From the IMG/VR virus record IMGVR_UViG_3300035070_002982, positions 1 to 36,301 of that record: a DNA stretch of 36,301 bases. One strand, given 5' to 3'. This document shows, piece after piece, positions 1,051 through 31,744 of the stretch; the first letter of the stretch is position 1; every line of letters begins with the position of its first letter. Under the pieces are notes generated by a model, which made no database searches, was not told where the DNA came from, and worked only from the letters and a program-made list of their open reading frames with translations. Made by a program: the position numbers and the translations under genes. The DNA comes from a virus.

Positions 1051-1521
1051 TTAAAAAGGCAAATCTTCATCTTCGTGTGCTATTTTAGCCATATCACCAC
1101 GAGGTTCTGGTTTTTCATATTTCTTTACCTGCTCACCACTAGCGTCAGTGTCTTTATCGGTTACGAGTCCAAGCATACTTGATAGTGCGTATCTGCGGAT
1201 ATAAGTAATTGCTGATCCTAGCACTTGAAATTCGTTCATCTTTGCTAGTTGTACTCCTTGTGGAATTAATGTTGAACCTTCAATATGTTCTCCAGTTTCT
1301 ATATGAAATATAATTGTTCGTATTACTGGAATAATATTATTTCCATCTACTATCGTTGAAATTGGTTGTGTAAACCCAAGACCATGTTTTTTTAACAACG
1401 GATTAATGATTTCAAATATAGCTGGTAGGTCTGCGTAAGAATACCCATACCCTGATGTTCCTTTGTGAATAACAGGGACGGATTGTTGAAATTCTGCCAA
1501 TGCTTTGTATAAATTTTTCAT
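1051..1521 (-). CDS. erf: ERF-family single-strand annealing protein
   Basis: Phage recombinase that anneals complementary single strands during replication or repair of phage DNA. The 156-residue protein has the ERF hallmarks: YSYADLPAIFEIINPLLKKHG at about residues 28-47 and GSAITYIRRYALSSMLGLV at 102-120, followed by DKDTD. The C-terminus is short and acidic (HEDEDLPF). The chosen start is the ATG at 1521 in AATAATATG, one base after the stop of the upstream 37-codon gene; the longer in-frame extension to 1581 overlaps that gene and is rejected. It lies in one operon with the DUF736-like and NinB-like genes. Confidence 0.92.
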   Translation of the reverse strand: MKNLYKALAEFQQSVPVIHKGTSGYGYSYADLPAIFEIINPLLKKHGLGFTQPISTIVDGNNIIPVIRTIIFHIETGEHIEGSTLIPQGVQLAKMNEFQVLGSAITYIRRYALSSMLGLVTDKDTDASGEQVKKYEKPEPRGDMAKIAHEDEDLPF

Positions 1522-1522
1522 A

Positions 1523-1636
1523 TTATTTCTGTTCTGTATTAGGTTTATAAGGTGTTGGATTGTAGAACTCTTTTTTGTCACCCCAGATAATCCAATCCAT
1601 TAATCTATCTATTGATGTTTTTTTGTTTTGTTTCAT
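1523..1636 (-). CDS. Small basic hypothetical protein (37 aa)
   Basis: Reads MKQNKKTSIDRLMDWIIWGD then a proline-rich tail. It fits exactly between its neighbours: its ATG follows the upstream stop by one base and its TAA precedes the erf start by one base (both TAATATG). This precise packing supports a real gene despite its size. No homology recognised. Confidence 0.6.
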   Translation of the reverse strand: MKQNKKTSIDRLMDWIIWGDKKEFYNPTPYKPNTEQK

Positions 1637-2000: not shown

Positions 2001-2486
2001 TTATGTAGTAATGTCTATTTTCCGTTTTTTTGTTTTTAATGTATGTTCTGGGTGGTTAAAATGACATTTATGACATAAAGTAATTAAACCATCCATATCT
2101 TTTTTAGAGTCACATAGTCTACTTTTTTTACCACATAACCCACCAAGATGATGTACGTCAAATCTTCTTTCATTTTTATTCCAAATTCTTTTGCATGTTT
2201 GACAAGTGTGATTATCTCTTATTCTAACTAATTCTCTAATATAATCTCTACCTGCTAAACCATACGCACCATTTCTTGTTTTAAAATTATATTTATTATT
2301 ATAATCAGTTTTTCCATTTTTTATAAACTCTAATTTACATTTTATTTTTTCAATACTCCAATTATTCAATATTTGACTAATTCTTTGATGTGTAATATCA
2401 AATAATTTTGATATTTCTGTTATTTTTTTACCACTTAATCTTTCTTGATGAATTAATATATATTTTTCTAATTTTTCTTTTTTCAT
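2001..2486 (-). CDS. HNH homing-type endonuclease with N-terminal HTH
   Basis: This is a 161-residue free-standing HNH protein. Residues about 18-41 (GKKITEISKLFDITHQRISQ) form a helix-turn-helix. The HNH/zinc module follows at about 90-145: CQTC (95-98), the VHH pair (111-113) and LCHKCHFNH (137-145). Such proteins nick or cut DNA and often behave as mobile homing elements. Its ATG overlaps the stop of the next HNH gene (ATGA). Base use is more A/T-rich than in the structural genes, fitting independent acquisition. Confidence 0.88.
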   Translation of the reverse strand: MKKEKLEKYILIHQERLSGKKITEISKLFDITHQRISQILNNWSIEKIKCKLEFIKNGKTDYNNKYNFKTRNGAYGLAGRDYIRELVRIRDNHTCQTCKRIWNKNERRFDVHHLGGLCGKKSRLCDSKKDMDGLITLCHKCHFNHPEHTLKTKKRKIDITT

Positions 2487-3034
2487 AATGATTTTATAAA
2501 ATTATCTAATAATTCAATCTCTTTTTTCAAATGGATACTTTCATTCATTTCTTTAACAAACTCTCCTGTTTCTTCTTTCATATTTGTTTTTACTCCATAT
2601 GTATCGTGAAACAATTTATGACATTTACAACACATAGCAATTAAGTGGTTATCTGGTTCATCTCCATATATACCAGTGTATACCTTATGGTGTAGTTGTA
2701 CATAATTTGTACTTTTACAACAAGAACATTGTTTTCCATGTTTTTTAAAATATCTGTTTTTTCTTTTTTCCCATAATTTGCTTATAATGTATGATTTGTA
2801 ACTTCTAACAGTTTTACGAATTTTTGGTTTTTTATTTTTCTTTTTTACATTTTTTCTTTTATCTTTCTCTTCTTTAGTCATCTTTCCTACTGTTCTTATA
2901 TGTTTTAACTTTCTTGACTTCTGAATATCATTCAACTCTTTGAACTTCTTTATCTCTTCTATTTGTATTTGTATGTTATCTAGTAAATTCATATGTTTGT
3001 TCTTTTGTTCAGCCACATCTCCCCCATACCCCAT
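2483..3034 (-). CDS. HNH endonuclease
   Basis: This is a 183-residue, very lysine-rich protein (long K/R run at about residues 55-80) with a C-terminal HNH module: CSCC, then QLHHKVY, then CCKCHKLFHD. The start is uncertain. ATG at 3034 gives 183 residues, but ATG at 2992 (MNLLDNIQIQ) removes an odd glycine-rich leader and may be correct. It lies directly downstream of the structured RNA at 3100-3290 and overlaps the second HNH gene by four bases, so the pair could be one mobile unit. Confidence 0.85.
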   Translation of the reverse strand: MGYGGDVAEQKNKHMNLLDNIQIQIEEIKKFKELNDIQKSRKLKHIRTVGKMTKEEKDKRKNVKKKNKKPKIRKTVRSYKSYIISKLWEKRKNRYFKKHGKQCSCCKSTNYVQLHHKVYTGIYGDEPDNHLIAMCCKCHKLFHDTYGVKTNMKEETGEFVKEMNESIHLKKEIELLDNFIKSL

Positions 3035-12590: not shown

Positions 12591-14621
12591 TTATTGTTTT
12601 ATCATTAAGATACCACTCACGTTTAATGGTGCTGCACCTGAACCTGTTGTCATATACACCATTCCTGTTGTAAGACCTGCTGTTCCCGCTGCTGCGTCAT
12701 CATCAAATGCTGGTAAGTTACTAATTGTTATGTGTTCGTTTACATCATCAATGGTTATTGATGTACCATTTGCACCGCCTTTTAATGATATTATATCGTT
12801 TGTCTCATCTACCTCTATTTTTGTACCAGTAGAAGAAATTTGTCCAACTGTATTTAGATTAGATGATACATCACGTAAGAATCCTTTCATCGTATTGTTT
12901 GTTGTAAGAATACCAATACGTGCAGAAGACGCAAATATAAATGCTTCGTTAGCTCCTCCATCAATTTTTATTTGTGTTGGATTTGCTCCTGCTCTAAAGG
13001 AATTTACAGAAGAATCATATGTAAAAACAGAACTAGCACCAAACGCACCTGCGTTATTATATTGAATCTGTGTATCTGAACCTGCTGGTGTAGAACCACC
13101 ACTAGCGTCAATAGTATAATCAACGCGATTATATAAAGGATTATTAACTCCTGTTATTGTTACTCCTGTACCTTCGATAAGGTTGATACCTGATTGACTT
13201 GCAATACCTACACTGTCTTTGTAGAAAGCAATAGTTGGTACGTTAGCGTAAGGTACTGAACCATTTGTCAAAATCATGTAGTCAATATCCCATTGTCGTA
13301 CTACTCCAACTGTTCCACCTGCCATAATCATTTTAAGTCCTTTTACGGTTGCTGGTAATGCACCGAATGCTGTAATAGGTACTACTACAAGTTGCCAAGT
13401 GTTTAATACTCCACGCTGTAGTCCATATGAGAATAGGTTAACTGTTGAACCTACAAGAGTTCCTGCACTGTTTTCAAAACGTACATTTAGAGATTTATTA
13501 GTTGCTACTGCTGTACCCGTAAACCGTACCCATACTTGTAACATTGTGTATTGATATGCATCGAAAGAAGTTGCTCTTACAAATCTTGCACCAAGTCGTG
13601 CGTCTGTACTAGCCTCGATACACTCTGTTCCCTGCTTTGGGGAACTTGTACCAGCAAAATCAATTGAACCTGTCGGTGTAGCTGTTTGATACGTTGATGT
13701 TGTCCAGTTTGTAGTAGGGTCATCCATGTAGATTTCCTCACTAGCGATAGTCGGTGTAGTTGAACCTGCTGCAACCAAAATAATAGTTACTTGTAGTTGG
13801 TCTTCTGGGATAGCTGGAACCTCTGGGTTCGCAGATGCTGTACCAGTAATAGCAGTAATTGTACCTGCTTCGTCTACCACGATAGCGTCAAATCGGTTAT
13901 CTGTAGGGTCTGATGCATCCAGCGTTACCTGGCTCGCATTTGCTGTTTTTAATCCATCAAAGAAATAATTAAGGAATGATACATCATAAGTAAGACCTGT
14001 ACCTGACCAAGTAATTCCACCAGAAATCATGTACTTACCTTGTTGTGTAAAGTTCGCATTAATAGAAATATCATTTCCTACTTCATCAAGTGTTACATTA
14101 TTTCCTGCAGATAGTGTTACGTCACCAGATAATCCGTTAATTGTTGTACTTGCCCCGCTACTTTTACTTGCGTTTGATTGGATAAGAAAACGTGTTTGGT
14201 TTTCCAACGTACTAATAGTTCGGTTAAGGTCTGTTTTATTAACATACTCACTAGAACCTTTAATTACTTTTGGGTCTAACACTTCTTCTAATGTGTTTAA
14301 TTTGTCTGCGATGTCTTTAGGTGTATCAGGACTTCCGTCTTTCCCGTCTTTTCCATCTCTTCCGTCTAGTCCGTCAATTCCGTCTCTACCATTATCTCCT
14401 TTTTGTGCTTTAACTTTTGATACAGTATCCTTGATAGTAGAGAACTCTTTTGTGATAGCAGTTATCTTTTCGTCTACCATTTCTGGAATTATATCAACAG
14501 CATCGGCAACCATTAAAAGTCCGTCTGTTAGGTCGGAAACTTTTGATTCGATTGTTGAAGTCTTATCGTTTGCAAGACTTTCAATATCTGCTATTTTTTT
14601 GTTTAGTTCATCTATTATCAT
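12591..14621 (-). CDS. Second collagen-like tail fibre/adhesin
   Basis: This 676-residue protein is paralogous to 10854-12527 at the N-terminus: helical start, eight or so Gly-X-Y triplets (GDNGRDGIDGLDGRDGKDGK, about 76-98), then GSPDTPKDIADKLNTLEEVL. The body is beta-rich. About 210-440 (TFQ-type jelly-roll sequence such as LQVWVRFTGTAVATNKSLNV) may be a carbohydrate-binding or structural module, and the C-terminus has GSDTQIQYNNAGAFGASS-type fibre repeats. The two fibres may assemble together or bind different receptors. Confidence 0.83.
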   Translation of the reverse strand: MIIDELNKKIADIESLANDKTSTIESKVSDLTDGLLMVADAVDIIPEMVDEKITAITKEFSTIKDTVSKVKAQKGDNGRDGIDGLDGRDGKDGKDGSPDTPKDIADKLNTLEEVLDPKVIKGSSEYVNKTDLNRTISTLENQTRFLIQSNASKSSGASTTINGLSGDVTLSAGNNVTLDEVGNDISINANFTQQGKYMISGGITWSGTGLTYDVSFLNYFFDGLKTANASQVTLDASDPTDNRFDAIVVDEAGTITAITGTASANPEVPAIPEDQLQVTIILVAAGSTTPTIASEEIYMDDPTTNWTTSTYQTATPTGSIDFAGTSSPKQGTECIEASTDARLGARFVRATSFDAYQYTMLQVWVRFTGTAVATNKSLNVRFENSAGTLVGSTVNLFSYGLQRGVLNTWQLVVVPITAFGALPATVKGLKMIMAGGTVGVVRQWDIDYMILTNGSVPYANVPTIAFYKDSVGIASQSGINLIEGTGVTITGVNNPLYNRVDYTIDASGGSTPAGSDTQIQYNNAGAFGASSVFTYDSSVNSFRAGANPTQIKIDGGANEAFIFASSARIGILTTNNTMKGFLRDVSSNLNTVGQISSTGTKIEVDETNDIISLKGGANGTSITIDDVNEHITISNLPAFDDDAAAGTAGLTTGMVYMTTGSGAAPLNVSGILMIKQ

Positions 14622-14624
14622 AAG

Positions 14625-16817
14625 TTATTTTTTGTTAGCCTTTTCCCAGATTTCTTCTAATTGTGATTTTGTTTTTAGAATATCTTTGTTCCATACACCA
14701 AAATTAGTACCCATTTTACTTTCTTGCGTTATCATTCCATCATACCCTAGTTTTTTTAGTGCATTTTTTACTTCTGGCATTTCTGCAAAGTATGCTTTCC
14801 CTTGCCTTATTCCATTAAGTATATCTTTAGAACTGTGAACTGGATTAGATAGACCACCTTTTGTTTCTGGTATTTCCAAAAATGTTCCATCTGGTTTTTG
14901 TATTCTTACTGTTTTTCCTGTTGGCTTTGATGAAATTATATCTTCTATTTGTTTTACTAAATCATCTGATGGTTTTCTTAGGTCAGCTAGTTTTGCTTTA
15001 CTATCAACCATAATTTCATTAAGAGAAGATTTATTTCCACCAAAAGATTTTGCGTAGTCTGGATTTTCAGACATATAGAAAGTTTTTTGGAAGTTAGATT
15101 TTCCTAGTTGAATATCCTTTATATCAGCACTTCCACCGTGATATAGTTTTGGTTGTGCCTTCACAAACTCATCTGCACTCTTATACTTCTTTGCTTCTGT
15201 GTATAAGTCACTTGACATTATTCCGTTTTTTTTTGATACTGGTGATATGGAACTATTTTTAATCATTTTAGGTGTAGTTGTACTCTGTGCTTTCATTGGG
15301 ATGTTAGCTTCTTGAGTTATATTATCTGCAACTCCTAATACTTGGGAGAGTTTTTTAGCACCTGCATTTCCTAGAAATTCTAAACCATTACCAAGTCTAT
15401 AAAGTACCTGTCCTCCTACTGTTCCAACTGGTGTAACTGCTTGGCTAAATATTTCACTAACTAATCCACCTGTTCCACCTTTTAATGCTTGACCAGTCAT
15501 TGATTTTTTACCCATTTCTCGTAATCCAATTAAATTACCATAATCTAGATATGCCTGTTTAACATCATCTCCAAGTTCGTTATATATTGTTTGACGTGCT
15601 TCTCCAGATAGAATATTTCTTACATCATTGAATGCCCCAGCAATAGATTTTCCTTGATATGCTTTGTCTGGTACAAATTCTGCCCAACCTTGTTTTAATT
15701 GTTCAAATTTATCCATTGGTACAGACGATACGTCCTTGTAATCATCTCTTATTGCTTGTAATGCTTCAAGTAATGAATTTTGACGTGAAAGTTCTGGATT
15801 TGATTGAATTATTTTTTGTTCTGCAACATCAAAGAATTTTTGTACATCTACTGCATTTTGAGCAGTTTTTAATCGTGGTTCAATTATGTTTTTCCATAGT
15901 GAATCAGTTGCTCTTTTAGCTTGTATACCTATCTGTGATTTTGTTCCAAATAATCCTTTTACTGTTTGTCCTTGTGTAGTTGTTAACGCCGTCTTACCAG
16001 CAGTAACAGGTGCTTTTTCTGTTCCTGATAATACATCACTAACTCTTTGTAAAAATGGTTTATTTGCTTTGTATGTTTGTAGTATACCTGCTTCACGTGA
16101 TGAAGTAGGTATAACAGATTCAACCATTTTACTACCTATTTTTGAAGTTACTCTACCAGCACCAGTTAATAATGGTAATGCACCTGGTATCGCAACACCT
16201 AATGCTGTACCTACTCCTGGTGTTAATGCTTCTCCAACTGTTTGGTTTTTATCAGTCAATCCATATCCTACATCTCCAGTATATCCACCTACCGCACCTG
16301 CTGCTATATTACCAATAGCGCCACCACCTACCGCACCTGCTACCTTACCATATGGTATTAAATATGATGCTGACTGTAGTGCTTCACCTACTATTTGTCT
16401 TCCACTACCATCAACACCTTTAGATAATACTGTTCCATTTGTTGTAGTTACATCTTTTCCAACTGTTTGACCCATTCTTTCTTCTAATGTTTGTCCAGTT
16501 CTTGCTTTTACGTTTTCTGATAGTTTACCACCTGATAATTTATCTGCTAAAGTTAATCCTAATGAACCTATTGCTTGACCTGCTCTAATACCTGGTTGAG
16601 TAATTAATGTTCTTGCTGGTTCACTAATAATTTGCTTTATACCACCACTTACTTTTTGTGTTTCCTGAGAACTTTGATTTCCAGATACAAGATTTCTAAA
16701 TGATTCAATCTCATTAGTTGGATTACTTACAGCAGTGGTTGGTGTATTCGCAGAAAAGCTGCCTGGTGTAATTCCAAACTGTTTTCTATATTTTAAGATT
16801 TCTTCATTAGTAATCAT
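14625..16817 (-). CDS. Internal virion protein with C-terminal ADP-ribosyltransferase-like domain
   Basis: This is a 730-residue protein. The N-terminus (EEILKYRKQFGITPGSFSAN) is followed by a glycine/alanine-rich hydrophobic region (about 150-215, GKVAGAVGGGAIGNIAAGAV), as in proteins that cross membranes during DNA ejection. A long helical part follows to about 510. Residues 558-730 look like a phage ADP-ribosyltransferase (ART) fold: LYHGG (558-562), FYMSENPDYAKSFGG (580-594), KAYFAEMPEVKNALKKLGYD and GMITQE (about 694-699), then NFGVWNKDILK. ARTs transfer ADP-ribose from NAD+ to targets. A domain on an ejected protein could modify host proteins at infection onset. Both the ejection and the activity are inferred. 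Confidence 0.75.
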   Translation of the reverse strand: MITNEEILKYRKQFGITPGSFSANTPTTAVSNPTNEIESFRNLVSGNQSSQETQKVSGGIKQIISEPARTLITQPGIRAGQAIGSLGLTLADKLSGGKLSENVKARTGQTLEERMGQTVGKDVTTTNGTVLSKGVDGSGRQIVGEALQSASYLIPYGKVAGAVGGGAIGNIAAGAVGGYTGDVGYGLTDKNQTVGEALTPGVGTALGVAIPGALPLLTGAGRVTSKIGSKMVESVIPTSSREAGILQTYKANKPFLQRVSDVLSGTEKAPVTAGKTALTTTQGQTVKGLFGTKSQIGIQAKRATDSLWKNIIEPRLKTAQNAVDVQKFFDVAEQKIIQSNPELSRQNSLLEALQAIRDDYKDVSSVPMDKFEQLKQGWAEFVPDKAYQGKSIAGAFNDVRNILSGEARQTIYNELGDDVKQAYLDYGNLIGLREMGKKSMTGQALKGGTGGLVSEIFSQAVTPVGTVGGQVLYRLGNGLEFLGNAGAKKLSQVLGVADNITQEANIPMKAQSTTTPKMIKNSSISPVSKKNGIMSSDLYTEAKKYKSADEFVKAQPKLYHGGSADIKDIQLGKSNFQKTFYMSENPDYAKSFGGNKSSLNEIMVDSKAKLADLRKPSDDLVKQIEDIISSKPTGKTVRIQKPDGTFLEIPETKGGLSNPVHSSKDILNGIRQGKAYFAEMPEVKNALKKLGYDGMITQESKMGTNFGVWNKDILKTKSQLEEIWEKANKK

Positions 16818-16818
16818 A

Positions 16819-18459
16819 TTAGTATTCTCCTAGTGCAATTAATATATCTGAATAATTTTTACCATCACCAAGCATTTGTTCAATAACTGGTTGTACTGAT
16901 GGATTTTGTTTTACAATATCTGAAACACGTATTTTTGTTAATGAATTTCCATCTTTATCTATAATATTGTTTTCAATAGAAAGTATATTTTTAGAAAAAT
17001 TATCATAATCTTCTGCAAATTGTGCAACATCATAACCACCACGTGCAAGTGTTTCAAGTTGATTTTTTAATCCAGCTTGTACTGTTTTTAATGTTGTTGC
17101 TTGTACTAGATTATTTTGTGACTTTGAAGATGTTAAGTTTGGAACAGTTTGTTTATATAGTGCCACATCTTGGTCTGTAAGAACACCAACTTCTCCGTAT
17201 GTTCCTCGTGCAAGTGTTGGTATAAGACCAGTCAATGCCGCTTGTGCTGCGTATGCATCAGGAGCTCCGCCAAATTTTGTTAAAAATTTACTAAATCTAC
17301 CTCCAAATATACCAGTTTTTGCATCTTTCATAAGTGCATCGACATTTTGTAATTGTGTTACTGCTGATTTAGCTTTTTCTATTTTAGTAATTTGTCCCTC
17401 TGTAAGAGCTTTTTTGTTTTTTCCACTTGATAACAATAGTCCTTGTGTATATCCTGAAGTTCCTGGTGCATATTGACTTAGATAAGAACCTCCAACAGTT
17501 GTCCCAACTTTATCAGCAAGTTGACTATATGACATATTCTTCATGTCTGGTGTATAACTACCATTATCAATAGCCTTTTCAATTAAACTAAATTTTCGAT
17601 TTGCTGCTTCCTTAGCTGCTTGATATGCTCGTTCTTCTTTCTTCTGAATATAGTCATACTGTCGCATTTCTGTTTTATCTAATATTTTATCGAATCTATC
17701 TCGATTATCTTTATAGAAATCAACTTTCATTTTCATTGGTTCAAGTTCTAATTCTAATTGTTTATTCATTAGCTCTTTAGCATTAGATAGTAAACCTGCT
17801 TTTAAGTTGTAATCAATAGCAATATCTGCTTTTTGTGATGCTTCTTTTCGGTCAATATCACCTATTACTGCTGCTTTTTGGTCTGAAGTAAGTGATGCAT
17901 CGTTCATTAAATTCTCTTTCTTTCTACGATAAGCAAGTTCTACTGAATCATAGTTTGCTTTTGCTTTCATAGCATCCTGTGATAGTTGTTGAATTTGATA
18001 TTGTTTCTCTAGTTCACCTGGTCGGTTCTGCATTTGATTAAGTAGTCCAGTGAATTGAGCCATGTAATCATTTTGAGCTGTTTGTGCGTTCTGATTAGCT
18101 GTTTGAGTAGCTGAACCTAATTGATTAAGACTATTGATTGTAGGCATAGCTAGATAACCTGCACTTGCTCCACCTAATTCTGTTGCACTTGTTCCTTGTG
18201 GTGCTGTTGGTAACTGAACTGGTTTAGTATTTCCTAATGCTGTTGCAGCAGGAATTACTGGAGGTTGAATAGACTGTAGATTCTGTGTTCCTGTTTGACC
18301 AGTACCACTTGTCTGTATGAAATTTAATAGCTGATTATTTTGTGCAGCAGTACCTGTATATCCTTGAATACCTGCTTGTGCAGCAAGAGAACCACGCTGT
18401 GATACAGATGGTAATGCTTGACCTTTGTCGCTATAGAATTGTGATAGTGTAGTTGCCAT
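16819..18459 (-). CDS. Putative internal virion/ejection protein (546 aa)
   Basis: Low-complexity Q/T/G-rich N-terminus (to about 130), then a long charged helical region (about 135-300, EKQYQIQQLSQDAMKAKANY; LELELEPMKMKVDFYKDNRD), then a globular helical C-terminus (GEVGVLTDQDVALYKQTVPN). No enzymatic motif. The size, helical content and position between the tail hub gene and the ART-bearing protein fit an internal virion or injection protein of a short-tailed phage. It is joined to both neighbours by TAA-T-ATG junctions. Confidence 0.7.
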   Translation of the reverse strand: MATTLSQFYSDKGQALPSVSQRGSLAAQAGIQGYTGTAAQNNQLLNFIQTSGTGQTGTQNLQSIQPPVIPAATALGNTKPVQLPTAPQGTSATELGGASAGYLAMPTINSLNQLGSATQTANQNAQTAQNDYMAQFTGLLNQMQNRPGELEKQYQIQQLSQDAMKAKANYDSVELAYRRKKENLMNDASLTSDQKAAVIGDIDRKEASQKADIAIDYNLKAGLLSNAKELMNKQLELELEPMKMKVDFYKDNRDRFDKILDKTEMRQYDYIQKKEERAYQAAKEAANRKFSLIEKAIDNGSYTPDMKNMSYSQLADKVGTTVGGSYLSQYAPGTSGYTQGLLLSSGKNKKALTEGQITKIEKAKSAVTQLQNVDALMKDAKTGIFGGRFSKFLTKFGGAPDAYAAQAALTGLIPTLARGTYGEVGVLTDQDVALYKQTVPNLTSSKSQNNLVQATTLKTVQAGLKNQLETLARGGYDVAQFAEDYDNFSKNILSIENNIIDKDGNSLTKIRVSDIVKQNPSVQPVIEQMLGDGKNYSDILIALGEY

Positions 18460-22768: not shown

Positions 22769-23152
22769 TTATTCAGCAATTTCTGCAACAATTTCGTCAA
22801 CTTTTTCTGCATCATCAACTTTTTGTCCTTGCTCAATTTTAACTTCTTTTGATTTTCGTTTAGCATCTTTCCAAAGTTCTAATTCATCCATAATTTTAAC
22901 CTTGATTTCTCCCTCTTCTGTAAGAGACAAGTCAGCTAAGATTTCAAATTCTGATAGTTTATCTTTGAATAGTTCTTCAACTACTGGTTTCATTTTATCA
23001 ACCAATTTTTGACGAATCATAATCTCTTTATCAAATTCAGCTTTAGCTTTTTCTGATTGTTCTACCATTTCTACAATGTTTTTATCAGCAACTTTAAGGT
23101 CTGCTAATAATTCTTTCAAGTCTTCATTTACAATTACTTCTGTTCGTTCCAT
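22769..23152 (-). CDS. Coiled-coil protein of the head module (127 aa)
   Basis: Highly charged helix throughout (LKELLADLKVADKNIVEMVE; KAEFDKEIMIRQKLVDKMKP), with a short beta part (GEIKVKIMDEL) and an acidic C-terminus. It overlaps the glycosyltransferase stop by 19 bases. It could be a head decoration or chaperone-like protein; no family recognised. Confidence 0.7.
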   Translation of the reverse strand: MERTEVIVNEDLKELLADLKVADKNIVEMVEQSEKAKAEFDKEIMIRQKLVDKMKPVVEELFKDKLSEFEILADLSLTEEGEIKVKIMDELELWKDAKRKSKEVKIEQGQKVDDAEKVDEIVAEIAE

Positions 23153-24216
23153 ATTTTTAGGTATGCGTCAGCCCATTTATGAGCATTATCCGCTATATTA
23201 TAATTATTAATTACATATTCACGAGCCTTCTTGCCCATTTGAACACGTTTATCTTTATTTTCTATTAAATCCATTGTCTTTTCAATCCAATCTTGTTCAG
23301 TAAATGCTATTTCCATATGTTTACTGTCTTCTTCTCCTTGATATGGTGATAGTCCATCTGCAAAACCTTGTGCAATTACTGGTACTTCACACATTGAAGC
23401 CTCTAAGAATTTAACATTAGACTTAGCACGATTAAAATAGTTATCGTGTCGTGGTATCAACATTAAATCTAGTTTAAGATTATTCAATGTATCAAAGTAA
23501 TCCTCTAACTGACAAAATGGTGTCCATTCTACGTTATATTGATTCCAGAAATCGAACTCTGGTTTATAAATATCTACTGCCCATTTAGTATCTTTTGTCT
23601 TAGGCGGTAGTGCAAATAAACAAATAACTACTTTAGGATTTTCTTTTAACTTTTCAAGTAGTGGTTTAATCTGTTCGTAATCTTTGTTACTTGCTACTGA
23701 ACCTACAATACCAATTCGTATGGTATCTGATTCATTACGTTTAGGTTTTGACCAATCTAGTGGGTCTACACAGTTTTTTAACGTAATAACATTATCATTT
23801 ACTTCTTTGTATTCTTTTTCTAGGAACTCTGTAGATACAGTTACTAAGTCTGATATTGCTGCGAACTTCTTTAGAATATCATCAATCTTTTGTACTGCCT
23901 CTTTTAGTTTTCCATCTAGTTTACCAAACATTTGTGTTGGTACTCCTGAATCTTTTACATAGGTATCATCATTATCCATGACAATCTTTTTACCTAATTG
24001 TTTAAGAAGTACACCAGCTTTTAATTGGTTTATATCCATTGGTCTATGGAATACAATTACATCAGCCTTCATAGCATCTTTGAACATTTGCTCATTGGTT
24101 ACTCGTGGTGTTCGTAATGATGTTTGCTCACCACTCCAGCCATTATGGATTAGTGGTTGTAAGCAACGTACATAGTAACAGGACTTATAACCCATTCCGA
24201 TATAATAAACTTTCAT
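23134..24216 (-). CDS. GT4-type glycosyltransferase inside the head module
   Basis: This 360-residue protein has a GT-B layout. The N-terminal half (MKVYYIGMGYKSCYYVRCLQ, DVIVFHRPM, KIVMDNDDTY) corresponds to the acceptor domain. The C-terminal half is the nucleotide-sugar domain: IRIGIVGSVASNKDYEQIKP, then FLEASMCEVPVIAQG at about 275-289, the family E-x7-E-like donor-binding region. Such enzymes move sugar from activated donors to protein, lipid or glycan. Its position between the capsid gene and the connector gene suggests glycosylation of virion proteins, but a wall or DNA target is also possible. Confidence 0.85.
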   Translation of the reverse strand: MKVYYIGMGYKSCYYVRCLQPLIHNGWSGEQTSLRTPRVTNEQMFKDAMKADVIVFHRPMDINQLKAGVLLKQLGKKIVMDNDDTYVKDSGVPTQMFGKLDGKLKEAVQKIDDILKKFAAISDLVTVSTEFLEKEYKEVNDNVITLKNCVDPLDWSKPKRNESDTIRIGIVGSVASNKDYEQIKPLLEKLKENPKVVICLFALPPKTKDTKWAVDIYKPEFDFWNQYNVEWTPFCQLEDYFDTLNNLKLDLMLIPRHDNYFNRAKSNVKFLEASMCEVPVIAQGFADGLSPYQGEEDSKHMEIAFTEQDWIEKTMDLIENKDKRVQMGKKAREYVINNYNIADNAHKWADAYLKIWNEQK

Positions 24217-24447: not shown

Positions 24448-25901
24448 TTATGAAGTTGTAATGATTTTTACAGCTGCGTTATCTCGGTTTTCAACTACTC
24501 CAAACAAAATGTCTGCAGTAGTTAAAGTTGAAAGATAATCAGGGATGTAAGAACTTTGTACACGAACGTTATGTTTACCAACCATTCCTTTTCCGTAAGT
24601 CATTACAGGAAGTGAAGAAGTTGCATAGTGGATAGCGTCTTTGTGAGCCAAAACGTTTACTCGTCCTCCTAGTACTACTGGTACATAAGTTGAAGAGTAT
24701 ACAGGGATTCCATATAGGAATGCTGCAGGCATTTTCGCTGTTGGGTCGTTAACTGGTGAGTTAATAGCCAAAGAGAATTTGTCTAGGTTTTGTACTTGTT
24801 TCCAGAATGTGTTTGGGTGCATGAAGAATGCTACTTCATCCATATCAACACAGTTTCCTTCCAAAGTTGCGATAGCTGCTCGGATGTCTGAATCTGCAAT
24901 AGCGGTTGCTGATGAACCTACTGATTGTGAGAATCCAGAGAATAGAGTTGCTACTGCTGTTTCCAATACTGCTGCGATTGTGTAACCAGCGTTTTTAGCG
25001 TATCGTTCTTGGATAGCGTAAGACTGTTTAACGAATGCTGCTTCTCGGTCTTCAATAGCAAATGATACTTCTTTCCATGTATCAATAACAAGGTCAATAG
25101 AAGTTTCAGTTGGACTGTTACTTTTGTGTTTTCTCCAATTACTTGGAGTGTCGGACTATATCTTCAATCTTTCGATTGTCGGGTGCTGTGGGCTTACCGT
25201 AGTATCCCTAGTCTCTGAACCTTCCATAGTCTTCCCTATGGCTCGGCTGCTGATTGACCTTCAATTATGAATTAAAGGCGTTCCAGCAATTCTCCCGATT
25301 TTGTTTTATGAACATTTTTGTGGCACTTAGTGCATAATGTGATTCCATTACTTTCATCATAAAAGAAATCATCATTACCATTTAATTTTCCATAATCATA
25401 TGTACTAATTATAGCACATTAACTGTCCAATAGATACCCCTAACAGTGAAGAAAGGGTAACTGCAACTGCGTTAGTTTTAGTGTTAGCTGACATTTCTGT
25501 CAAATTAGGAGTGTGTAGAGTGTCTCCACCTGCTGCTAATTCTCCTGATCGGTCTGTAAAGAAGTCAGTAATGATAAGTTTACATTTGAAGAAGTCGTTG
25601 ATTCGGTCTCCCCAAATTTCCATGTTGTTACTACCTATTTCTAGGCGGGTAGGGCATTTCTGCTACCTCTGCGTCTTCATGTATACACGCAGGTCGGACT
25701 ATCGCATCACCTTAATGGCAATAAGGCGTTTTTTCATTTAGTCTCTGCAAGTCCTCAGTTTAATAAATAAACAAGGTTCTTGAGGGTTACCCCATCGGGC
25801 TTTCCCCATTAATTAGAAAAAATTTTACATCCCCGAAATTATAGGTAAGGGATCATTACAGCCAAGTCTGTACTTGTGAATGTATCTGTTGCGAATGCCA
25901 T
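24448..25901 (-). CDS. Major capsid protein, split gene: exons 25901-25848, 25620-25454, 25120-24448
   Basis: Joining the three exons (54 + 167 + 673 bases) gives an unbroken 297-residue protein. Exon 1 encodes MAFATDTFTSTDLAVMIP. Exon 2 encodes EIWGDRINDFFKCKLIITDF through TNAVAVT. The leucine codon is split CT|T, and exon 3 continues NSPTETSIDLVIDTWKEVSF. An N-terminal arm, the SFAIEDREAAFVKQSY region and the late YGIPVYSST...GRVNVLAHKDAI segment fit an HK97-fold capsid subunit, and the gene follows the scaffold gene. Without splicing, translation stops at codon 21 (TAA). Exon ends match P1 guide pairing and terminal G of both introns. The start at 25901 is the only ATG in frame. Confidence 0.92.
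25121..25453 (-). ncRNA. Group I self-splicing intron 2 of the capsid gene (333 nt)
   Basis: All four conserved core elements are present on the minus strand: P GAATTGCTGGAAC (25292-25280), Q AATCAGCAGCC (25255-25245), R GTTCAGAGACTA (25220-25209) and S AAGATATAGTCC (25164-25153), plus a CAATC-GAAA-GATTG hairpin (P8). P1: exon end TACCCT (25459-25454) pairs with the guide GGGGTA (25440-25435), leaving the required U-G at the splice site. The intron ends in G (25121). Sequence is closest to the phage IA class. It contains the 3' stub of an HNH gene. Confidence 0.92.
25272..25415 (-). pseudogene. HNH homing endonuclease remnant inside intron 2
   Basis: An open frame without a start codon (…STYDYGKLNGNDDFFYDESN, then GITLCTKCHKNVHKTKSGEL and a stop) matches the C-terminal half of an intron-type HNH enzyme: the second zinc pair CTKC and the final KNVHK. 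The N-terminal half with the first CxxC and the HH is missing, so it is a deletion relic. Its end overlaps the P element, as seen in intact intron-borne HNH genes. Confidence 0.8.
25621..25847 (-). ncRNA. Group I self-splicing intron 1 of the capsid gene (227 nt)
   Basis: R-like element TGCAGAGACTAAA (25749-25737) and S-like element GCGATAGTCC (25705-25696) form P7. P8 is CGCCTTA/TAAGGTG (25729-25709). P4-P6 is compact: GGGG/CCCT, GCCC/GGGT, CAAG-aac-CTTG. P9 has CTGCGT/ACGCAG, and a CCTA-GAAA-TAGG hairpin follows. P1: exon end ATCCCT (25853-25848) pairs with the guide GGGGAT (25834-25829), with U-G at the splice site. The last intron base is G (25621). It is short, has no ORF, and is clearly different in sequence from intron 2. 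Confidence 0.87.
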
Positions 25902-30965: not shown

Positions 30966-31083
30966 AGTCTCGTTTTAATTGTTTAATAAACTTATCTATT
31001 TCATTACGACCATTTCCACAACCATAGATATTGTCTCTAAGTTCAGTTAGTTTGTCTATTATTGTTTGTAGTTCTATTGTCAT
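30952..31083 (-). CDS. Small helical protein (43 aa)
   Basis: MTIELQTIIDKLTELRDNIY then GCGNGRNEIDKFIKQLKRDY and EID: two helices around a glycine turn, a possible coiled-coil hairpin. It overlaps the glycosyltransferase 3' end by 41 bases. The long overlap lowers confidence slightly. Confidence 0.52.
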   Translation of the reverse strand: MTIELQTIIDKLTELRDNIYGCGNGRNEIDKFIKQLKRDYEID

Positions 31084-31744
31084 ATGATTGTTTAAATTCA
31101 TTAAAGTATTTCATCATTGTACTATGTGCTTCACTTAAGTTTCTATGTACATTACTAATCATAGACTCACCGTGTTTTCTATAAAAGAATAAATATTCAG
31201 GTACTGTTGCAACTTTATATCCTAAATATGTTGCCTTTAACCAAAATTGCCAATCTTCTAGTCCGATCTTAATACGTTCTTCATATCCACCAACCTTTTC
31301 CCATATCTCTTTACGAAACAATGAGCAACAGTTAATCTGATTATTTTGTAAAAAGTCTTCGTGAGTTGGATTAGTTTTAAACAAATATTTGCGGTCAGTA
31401 TCTCCAAATTCTTGTTGTCCTGTACCGATTATATCATATTCATCATTATATTTCAAACACTTTTCTATAAAATCAGGTGCTATTTTATCATCTGCATCTA
31501 GTGTTAATATCCATTCTCCTGTTGCTTCTTTGATACCTGCATTGCGTGCTGATGATAGTCCACCATTCTCTTTTTCTATAAGTTTCACGTCAAACATTTT
31601 AGCAATTTCACTTGTATTATCTGGACTACCGTCATTAACTACAATAACTTCACAGGGTACTGTTTGATTTAGTGCAGAGTTTACTGCATCTGGTAGCCAT
31701 TGACTCTGGTTATAGCATGGTATTATAATACTTACTTTCTCCAT
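31043..31744 (-). CDS. GT2-family glycosyltransferase
   Basis: This 233-residue enzyme has the GT-A fold signatures: VSIIIPCYNQSQWLPDAVNS at the start, VIVVNDGSPDNT, ENGGLSSARNAGIKEATGEW, then the DAD-type metal motif in LTLDADDKIAPDF. It continues with GGYEERIKIGLEDWQFWLKA (ED acceptor-side motif). Such enzymes transfer a sugar from a nucleotide donor, here perhaps to modify surface glycans or virion components. The C-terminus (NRTTNNNRQTN) is low complexity. It is in one operon with a SAM methyltransferase, a common pairing in glycan modification. Confidence 0.88.
   Translation of the reverse strand: MEKVSIIIPCYNQSQWLPDAVNSALNQTVPCEVIVVNDGSPDNTSEIAKMFDVKLIEKENGGLSSARNAGIKEATGEWILTLDADDKIAPDFIEKCLKYNDEYDIIGTGQQEFGDTDRKYLFKTNPTHEDFLQNNQINCCSLFRKEIWEKVGGYEERIKIGLEDWQFWLKATYLGYKVATVPEYLFFYRKHGESMISNVHRNLSEAHSTMMKYFNEFKQSYDNRTTNNNRQTN

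What the first reader, a model, noticed from the sequence alone, without database searches (positions are those of the whole stretch)
14625..15150. ADP-ribosyltransferase-like domain fused to a putative ejection protein
The last ~173 residues carry LYHGG, FYMSENPDYAKSFGG and a GYDGMITQE block, the general ART order. T4 packages separate ART enzymes (Alt) to modify host RNA polymerase at infection. Here the domain would be delivered as part of an internal virion protein with membrane-crossing glycine-rich segments.
Basis: partly seen in the sequence, partly recalled or inferred. Interest (0 to 1): 0.7.

Follow-up and report, generated by a model that had tools for sequence, protein, structure and literature searches.

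The report
Swappable ADP-ribosyltransferase cassette in ejection protein
The end of a predicted phage injection protein is an ADP-ribosyltransferase-fold domain, and it sits between two short sequences, conserved even in their DNA, that recur in dozens of unrelated phages around different enzyme domains, so phages seem to exchange the enzymes they inject through a shared slot.

Summary
ORF 14625-16817(-), 730 aa, ends in an ADP-ribosyltransferase (ART) fold. AlphaFold2 gives pLDDT 94 and pTM 0.85. Structural neighbours are AcrIF11, diphtheria toxin, ParT, PARP1 and the C-terminal domain of the cyanophage A-4L pre-ejectosome protein. The fold is the H-Y type (His560, Tyr581), not the R-S-E type of T4 Alt. 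At the canonical third catalytic position there is Asn705, so activity is likely but unproven. Gene order and the A-4L precedent support an ejection protein. The claimed membrane segments are only weakly hydrophobic.

The new part is that the ART domain is one payload in a conserved slot. Two brackets (EAKKYKSAEEFVKAQ, TKSQLTDIWNKA) recur in about 56 other proteins, almost all from IMG/VR phage contigs, around divergent payloads: 31 of 40 are H-Y ARTs, one a GNAT, others unknown. The brackets are conserved in DNA beyond what the protein requires. In one pair (L101/L154) an 85%-identical DNA block begins inside one bracket and ends at the other, with unrelated flanks. The window phage encodes an Erf-like annealase. 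I propose short-homology exchange of injected effectors at the brackets. The target is unknown; Alt-like takeover and AcrIF11-like anti-defence are the leading candidates.

The parts
14625..16817 (-). 730-aa predicted ejection (internal virion) protein carrying the ART cassette at its C-terminus
   Evidence: ORF list; gene order like A-4L and ctEw122 podoviruses
14673..15152 (-). ART core (payload), about residues 556-715; His560 in strand 1, Tyr581 in strand 2, Asn705 at the canonical Glu position
   Evidence: AF2 model; VIA alignments span model 14/15-178; leave-one-out HMM
15153..15197 (-). N-bracket EAKKYKSADEFVKAQ, 45 nt, 42/45 identical to the DNA consensus of the family (best in shuffled windows 24-27)
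14634..14672 (-). C-bracket TKSQLEEIWEKAN, 39 nt, partly decayed at DNA level (29/39; best in shuffled windows 23-24)
16819..18459 (-). upstream 546-aa predicted internal virion protein (position of the M23/CHAP protein in relatives); weak N-terminal match to an L-Ala-D-Glu peptidase family
   Evidence: phrog_2307, E 4e-6; relatives
12591..14621 (-). downstream collagen-like tail fibre protein; marks the end of the ejection module
1051..1581 (-). Erf-like single-strand annealing protein; candidate enzyme for recombination at the brackets
   Evidence: phrog_155 E 2.6e-33

Best explanation
The C-terminal 190 residues are an H-Y type ADP-ribosyltransferase domain. It is carried as an exchangeable payload at the end of a podovirus ejection protein and delivered into the host with the genome, where it probably mono-ADP-ribosylates a host component: either a host-takeover target as with T4 Alt, or a defence component as with AcrIF11. 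The payload sits between two short brackets, which are conserved in DNA and recur in otherwise unrelated phages around other ARTs, a GNAT and unknown domains. Payloads are swapped by recombination at these brackets, plausibly by phage Erf-type annealases. Shown: the fold (by prediction), the brackets, their DNA-level conservation, and similar payloads in unrelated backbones. Inferred: virion packaging, injection, catalysis, target and recombinase.
For: Fold: AF2 pLDDT 93.9, pTM 0.85. Foldseek PDB top hits are 9k3a_B (cyanophage A4 pre-ejectosome, E 5.9e-4) and 6kyf (AcrIF11, E 3.7e-3). VIA Z: 8.8 for AcrIF11, 8.1 for diphtheria toxin, 7.1 for ParT, 7.0 for 9k3a_B. Pfam ART-PolyVal matches 19 of 40 cassettes; the leave-one-out HMM matches 31 of 40. 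Ejection context: PDB 9k3a_B is A-4L ORF27, 1717 aa, and the window family's HMM matches its residues 1423-1596. Gene order is shared with A-4L and ctEw122. The upstream gene in relatives carries M23, CHAP or weak glucosaminidase matches, and the downstream gene is often a tail fibre. Brackets: 57 distinct proteins including the window. A scan for one bracket finds the other far above chance. Same-codon agreement relative to expectation is 1.37 and 1.58 for the brackets against 1.17 for the core. Exchange: L101/L154 payload 95% aa, outside 18-20%; the 85% DNA block spans from inside the N-bracket to the end of the C-bracket. Window and L003 share a 64% identical domain and no other detected protein. 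Closest relative G003 (terminase 93%) has an unrelated protein start at this locus. GNAT payload in L108 above the Pfam cut-off. Erf-like protein encoded.
Against: No virion proteomics and no NAD assay. The third catalytic residue is Asn rather than Glu/Asp in the window's own clade, so the domain could be a degenerate, non-catalytic copy. The window's C-bracket is partly decayed (29/39), so this copy may no longer be exchangeable. Loci were found partly through bracket motifs, which inflates bracket protein conservation (the DNA-level codon test and the partner-bracket test are not affected). Core codon agreement also exceeds expectation (1.17), so part of the excess is shared ancestry. The A-4L domain itself lacks brackets, and its sequence match is weak.
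Confidence: 0.72

Rival explanations
1. The brackets are a protein-level device (short helices that act as linkers, processing sites or unfolding handles for passage through the portal). Payload diversity is ordinary domain shuffling, and the DNA conservation only reflects recent spread of the module.
For: AF2 shows short helices at 8-13 and 177-189 flanking the ART core. Polyvalent proteins are known to be multidomain and may be processed by peptidases (PMC5512222).
Against: Synonymous conservation is higher in the brackets than in the payload of the same proteins. DNA homology between L101 and L154 runs from within one bracket to the end of the other. L071 carries two units with nucleotide-identical brackets and payloads 35% identical.
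Confidence: 0.35
2. The domain is a catalytically dead or purely structural ART-fold domain of the ejectosome.
For: Asn at the canonical Glu position in the window, L003, L060, L061 and L055. The A-4L ART-type domain also lacks a clear acidic residue there.
Against: His and Tyr are kept; Glu699 is conserved in all five Asn-bearing members. Many other payloads in the same slot have Glu. AcrIF11 is active with a non-canonical H-F-H-D set (PMC12421852).
Confidence: 0.3
3. It is an injected anti-defence enzyme of AcrIF11 type rather than an Alt-type host-takeover enzyme.
For: AcrIF11 is the best structural match by VIA (Z 8.8 over 120 residues). A rapidly exchanged payload repertoire fits a defence arms race (inference).
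Against: Diphtheria toxin scores within 1 Z unit of AcrIF11, and no host or defence system is known for this phage.
Confidence: 0.35
4. The C-terminal region belongs to a tail or baseplate protein that never enters the cell.
For: The gene lies between tail-like genes, and A-4L ORF27 was annotated 'tail protein'.
Against: A-4L ORF27 is in a deposited pre-ejectosome structure. The order terminase, portal, capsid, tail genes, internal proteins, fibre fits podovirus ejection proteins.
Confidence: 0.12

Closest known systems
ART-PolyVal domains of phage polyvalent proteins (Iyer et al. 2017, PMC5512222; Pfam PF18760)
   Same: His in strand 1 and Tyr in strand 2; carried in large virion-associated phage proteins; predicted injection
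   Different: Asn at the third position in the window clade; score below Pfam's cut-off for the window copy; conserved brackets with interchangeable payloads are not mentioned in the passages read
Cyanophage A-4L ORF27 (PDB 9k3a_B, pre-ejectosome)
   Same: ART-type domain near the C-terminus of a large protein encoded after the tail genes and an internal protein; same gene order
   Different: 1717 aa, no brackets, weak sequence similarity; activity not known to me
AcrIF11 anti-CRISPR ADP-ribosyltransferase (PDB 6kyf)
   Same: Best fold match (Z 8.8); phage-encoded; non-canonical catalytic set
   Different: Small stand-alone protein, not part of a virion protein; no sequence similarity detected
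T4 Alt
   Same: Virion-delivered ART idea
   Different: R-S-E class, separate enzyme in a myovirus; a different ART clade (PMC5512222)
Phage domain mosaicism (PMC10684548) and Rad52-like relaxed recombination (PMC3945230)
   Same: Exchange of protein fragments between phages; recombination at short or diverged homology
   Different: Here exchange is framed by recurrent, DNA-conserved brackets inside one class of predicted ejection protein; the mosaicism paper's text contains no mention of ejection or internal virion proteins

Membership tests
ART-PolyVal / Tox-ART-HYD2 clade | ADP-ribosyltransferase fold | tested here: met
   AF2 plus VIA/Foldseek
ART-PolyVal / Tox-ART-HYD2 clade | Pfam PF18760 above curated cut-off | tested here: not met
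   Window 26.5 bits against 31.2; relative L055 33.8 bits, above
ART-PolyVal / Tox-ART-HYD2 clade | His in strand 1 and Tyr in strand 2 | tested here: met
   H20 in E17-22 and Y41 in E40-43 of the model
ART-PolyVal / Tox-ART-HYD2 clade | Acidic residue (Asp/Glu) in strand 5 | tested here: not met
   Asn165 (N705) at that column in window, L003, L060, L061, L055; Glu in many other payloads. Assignment by sequence alignment, not from coordinates
T4 Alt / R-S-E ARTs | Arg-Ser-Glu catalytic set | tested here: not met
   H-Y motif instead
Polyvalent proteins | Several effector domains in one polypeptide near virion genes | tested here: inconclusive
   Window has one recognised effector domain; several relatives have two cassettes
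Podovirus ejection proteins | Gene position after tail genes and before tail fibre | tested here: met
Podovirus ejection proteins | Membrane-spanning segments | tested here: inconclusive
   Max KD19 1.53
Podovirus ejection proteins | Present in virion and ejected | not testable with these tools
   Needs proteomics; precedent only
ADP-ribosyltransferase enzymes | NAD-dependent transferase activity | not testable with these tools
   Needs an assay

The most novel reading that the evidence does not exclude
Many environmental phages share a cassette slot in their ejection proteins: two DNA-conserved brackets of about 40 nt serve as recombination sites through which injected effector enzymes (H-Y ARTs, possible R-S-type ARTs, a GNAT, unknown domains) are exchanged between unrelated phages, giving a common mobile arsenal of first-strike effectors.
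Probability: 0.55. Interest if true: 0.82.

Novelty: new variant of a known kind. Interest (0 to 1): 0.66.

Why it matters
Injected phage effectors act before any phage gene is expressed and are hard to find because they diverge fast. A conserved bracket gives a simple sequence handle to collect them across metagenomes whatever their fold. It would make testable how phages update their injected arsenal, and whether such ARTs take over the host or block its defences.

Tried and rejected
Full-length protein against phage isolates and IMG/VR: no relatives. PDB sequence searches with the domain and with the A4 profile: no ART hit. NCBIfam and PADLOC: nothing meaningful. Brackets in isolate phages: only partial matches; the two examined, VpV262 and a Flavobacterium elemo phage, lie under genes that do not look like the ART protein, so I treat them as chance. 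GTDB genomes: one archaeal-MAG contig (L074), and 1 of 300 genomes of its phylum, which is that same MAG. This gives no host assignment. The R-S-type payload (L101): AF2 only pLDDT 75; most VIA rows are ART folds but Z is 4.4 or less, so it stays tentative. The idea that the brackets are simply part of the ART fold was rejected because the same brackets flank a GNAT and short unknown domains, and the best ART matches span model residues 14-178 only.

Full report
Observation. The window is a 36.3-kb virus record, GC 34%. Alone, Pfam gives DUF3990 on the whole protein (E 0.0019) and ART-PolyVal on the domain (26.5 bits, E 1.2e-5, below the cut-off). Relatives of the domain were found in IMG/VR, and the domain of one, L055, passes the ART-PolyVal cut-off. 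An HMM built from other members without the bracket columns, leaving out the window and its three closest relatives (L003, L060, L061), finds the window payload at E 2.9e-17.

Fold. AF2 on 26 aligned cassettes gives pLDDT 93.9 and pTM 0.85. Foldseek against PDB ranks the cyanophage A4 pre-ejectosome chain 9k3a_B first (E 5.9e-4) and AcrIF11 second (E 3.7e-3). VIA gives Z 8.8 for AcrIF11 over 120 residues, 8.1 for diphtheria toxin, 7.1 for ParT, 7.0 for 9k3a_B and about 6 for PARP1; the best matches span model residues 14-178. These Z values are middling, but the list is dominated by ART-fold proteins. BFVD hits include several ART-PolyVal-like phage proteins.

Active site. His20 (His560 of the protein) lies in strand 1 and Tyr41 (Tyr581) in strand 2 of the model, matching the H and Y of polyvalent-protein ARTs (PMC5512222). 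By alignment to the PARP1 active-site segment (own knowledge), the catalytic Glu column holds Asn165 (Asn705). The same Asn is in L003, L060, L061 and L055, while many other payloads in the slot have Glu there. Glu699 is kept in all five Asn-bearing members. AcrIF11 works with a non-canonical H-F-H-D set (PMC12421852), so the Asn does not exclude activity. I rate catalysis at about 0.6.

Ejection context. In the window the order on the minus strand is small and large terminase, a 584-aa gene at the portal position, capsid, tail-like genes, a 546-aa protein, the ART protein, collagen-like fibres, and an M15 endolysin. Podovirus ctEw122 and Anabaena phage A-4L have the same layout, with the ART-bearing protein after an M23 or internal protein. 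PDB 9k3a_B is A-4L ORF27 over its full 1717 residues, and the window-family HMM matches it at 1423-1596 (i-Evalue 6e-4 in a seven-protein search), within the region matched by structure. Upstream genes in relatives carry M23, CHAP or weak glucosaminidase matches in three of the cases scanned; two of three downstream genes scanned matched tail fibre families. The hydrophobic glycine-rich stretches peak at KD 1.53, so trans-membrane status is open.

Brackets. The domain is framed by EAKKYKSADEFVKAQ and TKSQLEEIWEKAN. Similar motifs occur in 57 distinct proteins including the window. A fully degenerate scan for the C-bracket finds loci most of which have an N-bracket upstream at 9-15 of 15 matches (null maximum 8), and the reverse holds for most N-bracket loci. 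Mean pairwise identity is 76% and 75% in the brackets against 19% (27% when pairs are realigned) in the payload; the protein-level figure is inflated by ascertainment. The codon test is not: same-codon agreement is 0.67 against 0.49 expected (ratio 1.37, 95% 1.28-1.49) and 0.65 against 0.41 (1.58, 1.48-1.71), compared with 1.17 (1.14-1.23) for payload residues. The conserved DNA is sharply bounded, about 45 and 39 nt. The window's N-bracket matches the DNA consensus at 42 of 45 positions, its C-bracket at 29 of 39.

Payloads. 31 of 40 are H-Y ARTs by the leave-one-out HMM. L108 is a GNAT above Pfam's cut-off. L096, L101 and L098 resemble another ART class, tentatively. L097, L121, L131 and the first L068 unit are unassigned. 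Payload lengths run from 67 to 226 residues.

Exchange. L101 and L154 payloads are 95% identical in protein while 150 residues upstream and 100 downstream are at background. Their 85% DNA identity block runs from inside the N-bracket to the end of the C-bracket. L071 has two tandem units with nucleotide-identical brackets and payloads 35% identical. The window domain is 64% identical in G002 (L003), a phage in which no other window protein was detected. The closest relative, G003 (terminase 93%, capsid 96%), has an unrelated protein start at this locus; its contig ends before a C-terminus could be read. The window encodes an Erf-like annealing protein. Phage annealases recombine at identities as short as 23-27 bp (Red beta; PMC3945230), shorter than the brackets. 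That Erf does this here is inference.

Verdict. ART domain in a predicted ejection protein: supported; as such it is a new member of the known polyvalent-ART theme. The DNA-conserved bracket slot with interchangeable payloads was not described in the papers found and read here, and makes this a new variant. The literature search was limited to open papers, so prior description cannot be excluded.

Noticed in passing
window 24448-24966 (-): The capsid-like ORF is 172 aa in the window but 297-300 aa in G003, G008 and G025 with the match starting near residue 126, which suggests an interrupted gene, sequencing error or different start in the window.
   Followed up: no
window 1051-1581 (-), 2001-3034 (-): Erf-like annealing protein near two HNH endonuclease-like genes.
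   Followed up: partly
L080:3309-12281, L078:3323-12184: Giant proteins of 2990 and 2953 aa carry bracketed ART units internally with long uncharacterised remainders.
   Followed up: no
L165/L166 (G004): Shares a 73% identical terminase with the window but has no detectable portal or capsid similarity, so the terminase itself is mosaic.
   Followed up: no
L074: A 4.3-kb contig binned in an archaeal MAG carries a bracketed ART protein; possibly a misbinned phage contig.
   Followed up: partly
L108:1771-2253 (-): A GNAT acetyltransferase sits in the same bracketed slot, so injected acetyltransferases may be another effector class.
   Followed up: partly
window 23134-24216 (-), 31043-31744 (-): Two glycosyltransferase genes, one next to the capsid gene.
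   Followed up: no
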